From DAOVGU01 sp030637775 [NCBI: bacterium] (GTDB taxonomy: Bacteria; Ratteibacteria; UBA8468): a stretch of 12,935 nucleotides of DNA. A program made the translations under genes and the position numbers. Of this stretch, positions 262 through 1,945 are shown one piece after another. The stretch is from assembly GCA_030637775.1 (NCBI GenBank), contig DAOWFY010000145.1, positions 1 to 12,935 on the forward strand, given 5' to 3'. Positions within the stretch are counted from its first letter, which is position 1. Each line of letters opens with the position of its first letter. The notes under the pieces are model-generated. The model had not been told where the DNA came from. It saw only the letters and a program-made list of their open reading frames with translations, and made no database searches.

Positions 262-347
262 AGCGGCATTTGGCAACGGATGAATGCCCGGACAGAGAGT
301 TGCCTATAGCGAGCATCACTGCGAGCGTGCCGCTGGAGGAAACCTCC
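262..347. repeat. Hairpin-rich structured element between ftsL and rpsM
   Basis: Several inverted repeats are packed together. AGCGGCA (262-268) pairs with TGCCGCT (328-334). Inside it GGCAAC (272-277) pairs with GTTGCC (299-304), and directly beside it GGAGG-AAA-CCTCC (335-347) forms a third hairpin. A GCGAGC direct repeat occurs at 309-314 and 321-326. By eye the stretch is much more GC-rich than its surroundings. It covers the last codons and the stop of ftsL and ends about 50 bases before rpsM. It could be a palindromic repeat element, a terminator or processing structure, or a small structured RNA. The sequence does not match an RNA family I recognise. Confidence 0.55.
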
Positions 348-630
348 GAGCCTCCTTTATAATAATAACATCCGTTTCCCCAGGGACTCTAAGAGGAAGA
401 TGATGCCGGCGGAGACTCTGCTTGATTCTATAGGGGGATTTCAGACTAATGACTTTAAGGTTCAGTTCCCGATAAAGGGTAAGAAGCGCTTCTTTTTCCT
501 CCCTTTTCTTCTCAAGCGCATAACCTAAATGGACGATGGTATTATGTTGCCATACATAGCATAAAAGGAGAGTGAAGACAATGATAATTATCGGGATAAA
601 ATAAGAATTATTCCGCTTTTTCCTTTTCAT
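316..630 (-). CDS. ftsL: FtsL-like cell division protein (short bitopic coiled-coil protein)
   Basis: This 104-residue protein has a basic N-terminus (MKRKKRNN), one hydrophobic membrane span at about residues 9-28 (PIIIIVFTLLLCYVW), then a charged heptad-like stretch (about 38-70) and a short LPLRVPGE segment. The last resembles the 'LGLVKPGE' end of FtsL proteins. FtsL sits in the inner membrane and, with FtsB/DivIC and FtsQ/DivIB, forms the divisome subcomplex that recruits and activates FtsW/FtsI. FtsL sequence is poorly conserved, so the call rests on architecture and position directly after mraZ-rsmH. Its ATG overlaps the rsmH stop as ATGA, implying translational coupling. The final residues (about FPPAARSQ) are encoded by the hairpin element, so the native C-terminus may have been replaced. 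The expected next gene, ftsI, is absent. Confidence 0.75.
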   Translation of the reverse strand: MKRKKRNNSYFIPIIIIVFTLLLCYVWQHNTIVHLGYALEKKREEKEALLTLYRELNLKVISLKSPYRIKQSLRRHHLPLRVPGETDVIIIKEARRFPPAARSQ

Positions 631-1502
631 AATTTTTCTGCTACCCGTAATTTAGCGCTCCGAGAGTGGGGATTGATACAGCGTTCCATCTGTGCAGGAA
701 CCACGGGTGAGCGGGTAATAATCTTTATTGATTTAGACTGAGCAAATTTTTGAAATGTGTGCTTGGTGATGCGATCCTCCAAGGAGTGAAAAGAGATTAC
801 CGCAATTCTTCCCCTCTTTTTTAGAAGATTAATTGCTTTAGGCAAACTCTCCTCCAAAGCCTCCAATTCTCTATTTATCGCAATCCTTAAGGCCTGGAAG
901 GTCTTTGTTGCCGGATGAATCCTTTTTCTTCTTTTGGGGACGGTATGAGCAATTACCCTTTTCAACTGGAAAGTAGTAGAAATAGGAGAGAACTTCCTTT
1001 CCTTGATGATGGCGGTGGCAATTCTTTCCGCATAATACTCCTCTCCATACTCTCGTAAGATTTGACATAGTTCCTCTTTAGATGCCTCATTTACTATCTG
1101 CTCCGCGGTAAGCTTCTGCTGCCGGTCCATCCGCATATCTAAAGGACCATCAACCGAGAAAGAAAACCCTCTTTCTTTTTTCTGAATCTGCAAGATTGAT
1201 AATCCCAAATCATAAAGGACCCCATCAAACCTTTCTTTTCCGGGGATAATCTTCTCCAGGTTGGCAAAGTTCTCTTGTATCAACTCTAAATTTTTTCTAT
1301 AATTTTTTAATCTTTCCTTGGCTAAATTTAGCATCTCCCCATCCCGATCAATCCCGAGAAGCTTTCCCCCGGGAACAATCCTCTTTAGGATTGCCTGGCT
1401 ATGGCCACCGGCTCCGATGGTACAGTCTAAATACATCCCGCCTGCCAGAGGATGAAGAAAATCAATTACCTCATCGGCCAGTACCGGAATATGCGCGGTT
1501 AT
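627..1502 (-). CDS. rsmH: 16S rRNA m4C1402 methyltransferase RsmH, apparent ATA start
   Basis: RsmH (MraW) methylates N4 of C1402 in 16S rRNA using S-adenosylmethionine. The SAM-binding motif DCTIGAGGHS, the internal DGVLYDLGLS and RGFSFSVDGPLDMRMD motifs, the VISFHSLEDR segment and the NPHSRSAKLRVAEKL end are all diagnostic. The first in-frame ATG (1436) lies just before DCTIGAGGHS and would delete the family's conserved N-terminus. Reading upstream in frame gives TAHIPVLADEVIDFLHPLAGG, the normal RsmH beginning. Between the upstream in-frame TGA and CTG codon 8 there is no ATG, GTG, TTG or CTG. The codon in the expected position is ATA (1500-1502). It overlaps the mraZ stop as ATAA and follows AAGGAG by 7 bases. 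With that start the protein is 291 residues, near the usual ~300-310. Identity is certain; the start is inferred, and a base error (ATGA read as ATAA) is the alternative. Confidence 0.93.
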   Translation of the reverse strand: MTAHIPVLADEVIDFLHPLAGGMYLDCTIGAGGHSQAILKRIVPGGKLLGIDRDGEMLNLAKERLKNYRKNLELIQENFANLEKIIPGKERFDGVLYDLGLSILQIQKKERGFSFSVDGPLDMRMDRQQKLTAEQIVNEASKEELCQILREYGEEYYAERIATAIIKERKFSPISTTFQLKRVIAHTVPKRRKRIHPATKTFQALRIAINRELEALEESLPKAINLLKKRGRIAVISFHSLEDRITKHTFQKFAQSKSIKIITRSPVVPAQMERCINPHSRSAKLRVAEKL

Positions 1503-1945
1503 TTTTCCTCTCCTTGGGTAACTAATTTTTCGGCAATCTCCTCAAAAGAGGCAAGGGAATTTTGAAGATAGCCTTGCCAATTTTTCTCTGACCAGATCTC
1601 AATCCGGTCGGAAACCCCGATAAGAACAATTTTCTCCCTAATCTGAGCAAAGCCAAGCAGATATGATGGAATAGCAATTCTTCCCTGCCTATCCGGGATA
1701 CAGAGCGCAGCCCCGGAGAAGAAGAGCCGACTGATGGCTCGGGGATTACCTCTGGTAAATGGCATATTTCTTAATCTCTCTTCCTGTTTCTTCCAGTCCG
1801 CTTCAGCAAAGAGAAAGAGACATCTCTCCAGACCCCGGGTAATAATGAGATGCTTTTTATACTTGATCAGTGCGTGGCGGAATTTTGCCGGAATGACCAG
1901 TCTTCCTTTCTTGTCTATCTTATACCTGTATTCCCCGTAAAACAT
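1499..1945 (-). CDS. mraZ: Transcriptional regulator MraZ
   Basis: This 148-residue protein has two SpoVT/AbrB-like half-domains with the diagnostic loops DKKGRLVIP (residues 11-19) and PDRQGRIAIP (84-93), exactly as in MraZ. MraZ assembles into ring-shaped oligomers and binds direct repeats ahead of its own gene to control the division and cell wall cluster. It is the first gene of that cluster here. The stop overlaps the start region of rsmH by 4 bases, and rsmH in turn overlaps ftsL, so the three form one transcriptional unit. Length is normal. Three MraZ boxes and a sigma-70-type promoter lie directly upstream, so autoregulation is well supported. Upstream of the ATG there is only weak Shine-Dalgarno potential (GTGGTAAAG), which overlaps the proximal MraZ box. 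Confidence 0.95.
   Translation of the reverse strand: MFYGEYRYKIDKKGRLVIPAKFRHALIKYKKHLIITRGLERCLFLFAEADWKKQEERLRNMPFTRGNPRAISRLFFSGAALCIPDRQGRIAIPSYLLGFAQIREKIVLIGVSDRIEIWSEKNWQGYLQNSLASFEEIAEKLVTQGEEK

What the first reader, a model, noticed from the sequence alone, without database searches (positions are those of the whole stretch)
1436..1510. rsmH appears to start at ATA, overlapping the mraZ stop as ATAA
The conserved RsmH N-terminus (TAHIPVLADEVIDF) is encoded in frame upstream of the first ATG. Between the preceding in-frame TGA (inside mraZ) and the CTG of codon 8 there is no ATG, GTG, TTG or CTG. ATA at 1502-1500 occupies exactly the place of the usual initiator, 7 bases after AAGGAG, and overlaps the mraZ stop as ATAA where ATGA overlaps are normal. 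A single G-to-A change would convert ATGA to ATAA, keeping the mraZ stop (TGA to TAA) but making the rsmH start non-canonical. Either AUA initiation is used, perhaps with coupling to mraZ, giving low RsmH synthesis, or the base is an error or strain variant. The in-frame ATT codon 18 bases upstream is a weaker alternative start.
Basis: partly seen in the sequence, partly recalled or inferred. Interest (0 to 1): 0.72.

Follow-up and report, generated by a model that had tools for sequence, protein, structure and literature searches.

The report
Conserved AUA start codon on rsmH
In a little-known group of bacteria the gene for a ribosome-modifying enzyme (RsmH) begins with the almost never used start codon AUA instead of AUG, and relatives share this, which suggests that the cell really starts the protein there, probably at low level.

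Summary
RsmH (TIGR00006, twice its cut-off) has ATA where its initiator belongs (window 1502-1500, minus strand), 7 nt after AAGGAG, overlapping the mraZ stop as ATAA; no ATG/GTG/TTG/CTG lies between the upstream in-frame TGA and codon 8. One detail is wrong: the in-frame ATT lies 24, not 18, bases upstream.

It is not a base error or strain variant. All three other family genomes held (RsmH 85, 74, 69% identical; one is Candidatus Ratteibacteria) have ATA there; none has the ATG at 1436. RsmH is under purifying selection. Best reading: true AUA initiation, SD-driven, probably coupled to mraZ termination. Upstream ATT, -1 frameshifting and internal starts fit worse.

One genome of a second family of the class has the same ATAA, and two Nitrospirota families contain rsmH genes without a canonical start. 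mraZ at the same loci never lacks one (0 of 150 against 9 of 178), but counted by lineage this is not significant.

Loss of RsmH is reported to raise initiation at AUU, so an AUA start could let rsmH regulate itself, as infC does. That is untested. A second ATA gene here, not conserved in relatives, suggests AUA may simply be tolerated.

The parts
1500..1502 (-). AUA start codon of rsmH, overlapping the mraZ stop (ATAA)
   Evidence: same codon in G001, G002, G003
1510..1515 (-). Shine-Dalgarno AAGGAG, 7 nt before ATA
   Evidence: purine-rich stretch at the same place in the three relatives; 16S 3' end of the relative G003 carries CACCTCC
627..1502 (-). rsmH (mraW), 291 codons from ATA plus stop
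   Evidence: TIGR00006 332.7 bits (cut-off 154.3), matching from residue 3; PF01795 359 bits
1499..1945 (-). mraZ, 148 aa, stop TAA 1501-1499
   Evidence: TIGR00242 137.1 bits (cut-off 98.35), PF02381
1524..1526 (-). in-frame ATT, alternative start judged unlikely
1434..1436 (-). first in-frame ATG (codon 23), absent in all three relatives
316..630 (-). next gene (ftsL would be expected here; no family search was made), ATGA overlap with the rsmH stop

Best explanation
rsmH is really translated from AUA at 1502-1500. Shown: the codon, its SD, the ATAA/ATAG overlap and their conservation in four species. Inferred: initiator fMet-tRNA pairs with AUA (third-position mismatch), helped by the strong SD and by ribosomes that have just ended mraZ at the overlapping stop; yield is well below that of AUG. 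It probably arose once in the family's ancestor by G to A in an ATGA overlap, a change that leaves the mraZ stop working (TGA to TAA) and so costs only rsmH start strength.
For: ATA in 4 of 4 family genomes held: ATAA, ATAA, ATAG, ATAA, despite NG86 dS of 1.27-2.18 in five of six rsmH pairs and 0.41 in the closest. The profile match of RsmH begins at residue 3 after ATA. Purifying selection: rsmH dN 0.08-0.26, so the protein is presumably made. In G001 no ATG/GTG/TTG follows before codon 57, past the G.GGH motif. In the 39 nt upstream of ATA the pairwise codon differences among G000, G001, G002 (4, 2, 2) are all silent in mraZ and all change residues in the rsmH frame (G003, whose mraZ end differs more, was not in that count), so coding in the rsmH frame begins downstream. 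One genome of another family of the class, G022, has ATA AGG TCG CAT, again as ATAA. Precedent: AUA is the start of infC and ccpN in S. aureus; reporters gave about 10% of AUG in poor medium and up to 30% for ccpN in rich medium (PMC13009471, passages).
Against: No expression data. Retention of A at this base is not unusual by itself: of 19 conserved Lys/Glu/Gln codons ending in A in G000, 12 end in A in all four genomes. G002 and G003 have GTG at codon 7. All are metagenome assemblies and no reads were seen. Residues 2-3 after ATA vary. An in-vitro survey found that weak third-base pairs are disfavoured by IF3 (medians 0.0 for expanded wobble and mismatch; PMC10158994, passages). The initiator tRNA of this family was not found or examined.
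Confidence: 0.77

Rival explanations
1. Internal start: RsmH begins at a downstream codon (CTG codon 8 or ATG codon 23 here; GTG codon 7 in G002 and G003).
For: CTG at codon 8 in G000 and G001 and GTG at codon 7 in G002 and G003 exist.
Against: No such codon is shared by all four; G001 has no ATG/GTG/TTG until codon 57. These starts would remove the conserved HIPV in whole or part and lie 25 nt or more from the SD.
Confidence: 0.08
2. Upstream start at the in-frame ATT (1526-1524), read through the mraZ end.
For: ATT is present in all four and AGGAG lies 11 nt before it.
Against: The ATT lies within mraZ codons. The pairwise codon changes in the 39 nt upstream of ATA among G000, G001, G002 (4, 2, 2) are all silent in mraZ and all change residues in the rsmH frame; the SD spacing is long.
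Confidence: 0.05
3. Programmed -1 frameshifting at the end of mraZ gives a MraZ-RsmH fusion; ATA is then just the first codon after the shift.
For: rsmH is in the -1 frame; G000 ends mraZ with GAA AAA TAA after an SD-like AAGGAG.
Against: G001 and G003 end GAG AAA TAA and would re-pair poorly after slipping; G022 ends ACA TAA. No fusion is needed when an SD stands at start distance. No fusion was looked for in data.
Confidence: 0.05
4. Assembly error or strain variant; the real base gives ATGA.
For: All data are metagenome assemblies; no reads were available.
Against: Four species, five of six pairs with dS above 1, have the same codon.
Confidence: 0.01

Closest known systems
infC (IF3) with AUU/AUA start
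   Same: Near-cognate AUH start on a gene whose product controls start-codon fidelity; S. aureus infC starts at AUA (PMC13009471, passages). In this family infC itself may start at ATT/ATC.
   Different: RsmH acts by methylating C1402 of 16S rRNA, not as a factor; feedback has not been shown; here the start overlaps the stop of the gene before.
S. aureus ccpN (AUA) and cvfC1 (AUU)
   Same: Conserved non-canonical starts that lower yield (PMC13009471, passages).
   Different: Different genes and phylum; start shown by Ribo-Ret there, inferred here.
Ordinary mraZ-rsmH ATGA junction of the dcw cluster
   Same: Gene order, 4-nt overlap, SD; ATGA is seen in three genomes (G009, G010, G016) of another family of the class.
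   Different: G to A turns the AUG into AUA while keeping the mraZ stop.

Membership tests
RsmH / MraW 16S rRNA m4C1402 methyltransferase | Full-length match above the curated cut-off | tested here: met
   TIGR00006 332.7 bits against 154.3, residues 3-290 of 291; PF01795
RsmH / MraW 16S rRNA m4C1402 methyltransferase | Target site present in 16S rRNA | tested here: inconclusive
   ACACCGCCCGTC present in relatives G003 and G022; no 16S match in G000 or G001 and only a partial one in G002
RsmH / MraW 16S rRNA m4C1402 methyltransferase | Methylates C1402 | not testable with these tools
   needs biochemistry
Genes with a conserved near-cognate (AUH) start | Same non-canonical codon at the homologous place in relatives | tested here: met
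   ATA in 4 of 4 family genomes
Genes with a conserved near-cognate (AUH) start | No usable canonical start nearby | tested here: inconclusive
   No ATG/GTG/TTG upstream in 4 of 4; downstream none before codon 23 in G000 and codon 57 in G001, but GTG at codon 7 in G002 and G003
Genes with a conserved near-cognate (AUH) start | Initiation at that codon measured | not testable with these tools
   needs proteomics, ribosome profiling or reporters
infC-type autoregulation by start-codon discrimination | Product lowers initiation at its own start codon | not testable with these tools
   More mis-initiation at AUU in E. coli lacking MraW is reported (PMC13317604, passages; non-AUG in general, PMC6821322); not for AUA or this gene

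The most novel reading that the evidence does not exclude
rsmH is a second infC: in several lineages it has given up AUG for a near-cognate start (AUA in this family and once in a sister family, perhaps AUU/AUC and ACG in two Nitrospirota families) so that 30S subunits lacking m4C1402, which start more readily at such codons, make more RsmH. RsmH thereby senses its own product, the methylated P site, through its start codon.
Probability: 0.2. Interest if true: 0.82.

Novelty: new variant of a known kind. Interest (0 to 1): 0.56.

Why it matters
Gene finders that allow only ATG/GTG/TTG would start this RsmH at codon 23 (G000) or 57 (G001), the latter past the cofactor motif. More widely, RsmH modifies a nucleotide that touches the start codon, and its loss is reported to loosen start selection at AUU and weaken GUG and UUG (PMC13317604, passages), so a near-cognate start on rsmH itself makes a feedback loop directly testable with a few reporters in E. 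coli K-12. The listings of seven searches (open-licence PubMed Central only) and the passages I opened mention no AUA or AUU start on rsmH; most listed papers were not opened.

Tried and rejected
Sequence error (rejected by relatives). Upstream ATT. Frameshift fusion. Genome-wide AUA starts: not supported. Among codons overlapping an upstream stop 120 are ATG, 12 GTG, 3 TTG and 29 ATA; 26 of the 29 ATA have a canonical start within 8 codons (22) or upstream in frame (4), leaving rsmH, the MMPL gene and L127 (L127 not followed up). RNA structure at the junction: the four sequences fold no better than shuffles (z 1.55, 0.06, 0.36, 0.01). Selection for A at the base: not shown (12 of 19 comparable sites also keep A). 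rsmH against mraZ as control: 9 of 178 against 0 of 150 (176 and 147 distinct junctions). Leaving out L029, which looks frame-broken, 8 of 178, Fisher P 0.009; with the rsmH cases collapsed to 4 lineages P 0.13. Not used in those counts: 4 of 182 loci for rsmH (L057, L234, L295, L297); for mraZ 26 without a match, 4 partial, 1 with its N-terminus outside and 1 with an open frame end. A pattern search for initiator tRNA matched in 0 of 4 genomes and says nothing, as the pattern may not suit this phylum; one tRNA-Met (CAT) gene was found and not shown to be the initiator.

Twelve of the 15 ORFs flagged by the looser scan and three of the five of the strict scan were not followed up. Passages of PMC8475190, PMC8266586 and PMC11497404 were seen and decided nothing.

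Full report
WHAT IS THERE. On the minus strand the window carries mraZ (1945-1499), rsmH (1502-627) and a third gene (630-316), each overlapping the one before by four bases. MraZ and RsmH are clear by profile: TIGR00242 at 137.1 bits and TIGR00006 at 332.7 bits (cut-offs 98.35 and 154.3). The mraZ/rsmH overlap is ATAA. The rsmH frame is open from a TGA at 1544-1542; its 13 codons before ATA and codons 2-7 after it hold no ATG, GTG, TTG or CTG. AAGGAG stands 7 nt before ATA. The in-frame ATT is 24 nt upstream (1526-1524), not 18 as first written.

NOT AN ERROR. The genome (G000, a draft of 1.40 Mb in 177 contigs) has three other family members among the genomes searched, the four making up three genera: G001 (RsmH 85% identical), G002 (74%) and G003 (69%). 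The G003 locus (3,870 bases) is identical to that of PFWI01000157.1, Candidatus Ratteibacteria CG_4_9_14_3_um_filter_41_21. All three have ATA at the same place, as ATAA, ATAG and ATAA. The ATG of codon 23 is AAG, AGA and ACG in them. NG86 dS of rsmH is 0.41 for G000/G001 and 1.27-2.18 for the five other pairs; dN is 0.08-0.26. The protein is therefore under constraint and presumably made, and the codon is old.

WHERE TRANSLATION STARTS. In the 39 nt before ATA the codon differences among G000, G001 and G002 (4, 2 and 2, pairwise, so not independent) are silent for MraZ and change the residue in the rsmH frame, without exception (G003 not counted). That segment is not read as RsmH, which counts against the upstream ATT. 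Downstream, no canonical start is shared before codon 57: G000 has ATG at codon 23, G001 nothing before codon 57, G002 and G003 GTG at codon 7. A -1 shift would need a slippery mraZ end; G001 and G003 (GAG AAA TAA) and G022 (ACA TAA) do not offer a good one. ATA with its SD is the start at the right place that all four share.

GENOME CONTEXT. In 625 5'-complete ORFs (841,940 bases, 101 stretches) the strict scan flagged five, three of them with only 9-13 extra codons. The two clear ones are rsmH and a PMT_2-type membrane protein with ATT after AAGGAGG. The G001 relative of the latter keeps that ATT but also has an in-frame TTG two codons before it, next to its AGGAGG. The looser scan (855 ORFs, 1,020,397 bases) flagged 15, among them an MMPL-family gene in L184 with AAGGAGG, 7 nt, ATAA. 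This is an instructive contrast: G001 (95% identical) and G002 (83%) have ATG there, and no match was found in G003. So ATGA-to-ATAA changes seem to occur in this lineage without being shared by relatives; of these two only the rsmH one is family-wide. This counts against reading every ATA as regulation. infC of G000, G001 and G003 has ATT, ATC, ATC in a common place after a G-rich stretch, though GTG codons are also in frame in G000 and G003; suggestive of the usual non-AUG infC start. No infC was found in G002.

OUTSIDE THE FAMILY. I examined 182 loci: 109 from the searches (L032, a duplicate of L005, and L001, the window again, were dropped beforehand), 13 and 60 fetched junctions. rsmH was usable in 178 (176 distinct); 9 had no ATG/GTG/TTG between the upstream stop and the HxPV motif: the four family genomes, G022, L058, L220, L083 and L029. 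L029 looks frame-broken, as an ATG stands just upstream in another frame. mraZ, treated the same way, gave 0 of 150. By genome P is 0.009, by lineage 0.13, so recurrence is suggested, not proven. G022 belongs to another family of the class; of its genus-mates with a readable start, four have ATG (G009, G010, G016, G021), G030 has TTG, and G024 has CTG at that place with its only upstream ATG 25 codons before HxPV. L058 (Nitrospirae JdFR-85) and L220 have ATT and ATC 7 nt after GAGGAGG, or CTG/GTA over the mraZ stop; the other genomes read in that family have a canonical start. L083 and five family members share an ACG two bases after the mraZ stop (6 of 6). Of the five tested for canonical starts, three have none, one has an ATG 32 codons before HxPV, and one has a TTG two codons before the ACG and ATGs further up. 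These starts are less certain than the AUA.

MECHANISM. Shown: codon, SD, overlap, conservation, constraint on the protein. Inferred: initiator tRNA reads AUA with a third-position mismatch, aided by the SD and by arriving mraZ ribosomes; low yield. Precedent: in S. aureus AUA starts infC and ccpN, giving about 10% of AUG in poor medium and up to 30% for ccpN in rich medium (PMC13009471, passages). Against easy AUA initiation stands an in-vitro survey in which weak third-base pairs gave median 0.0 (PMC10158994, passages). The feedback idea rests on reports that loss of RsmH raises mis-initiation at AUU and weakens GUG and UUG in E. coli (PMC13317604, outline and passages) or raises non-AUG initiation (PMC6821322 and PMC7600485, passages). 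The original study (Kimura and Suzuki 2010, by recall and as cited in PMC8475190) was not held. AUA was not among the codons named in the passages. The same preprint also reports that ribosomes from B. subtilis lacking MraW translate about twofold less efficiently, which would work against derepression. The C1402 region and the anti-SD are normal in G003 and G022; RsmI is over the cut-off in G000 and G003, in two pieces below it in G001, not found in G002.

VERDICT. A real, conserved AUA start on rsmH: rare, but of a known kind (near-cognate starts), with an unusually apt gene. That it is regulatory is possible, not shown.

Noticed in passing
L184:163-2490 (G000:C73), minus strand: MMPL-family gene with ATA start, AAGGAGG 7 nt upstream and ATAA overlap; G001 and G002 have ATG at the aligned codon.
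   Followed up: yes
L123:6745-8661 (G000:C12), plus strand: PMT_2-type membrane protein that seems to start at ATT after AAGGAGG; ATT kept in G001 (L216), which also has an in-frame TTG two codons earlier.
   Followed up: partly
L319-L324: Six genomes of a Nitrospirota family share an ACG two bases after the mraZ stop, a possible rsmH start.
   Followed up: partly
L058/L218 and L220: rsmH without canonical start; ATT/ATC 7 nt after GAGGAGG inside mraZ in both.
   Followed up: partly
L214, L213, L212: infC of G000, G001, G003 may start at ATT/ATC.
   Followed up: partly
L234/L233 (G103:C123): rsmH reported as two adjacent pieces, perhaps a frameshift.
   Followed up: no
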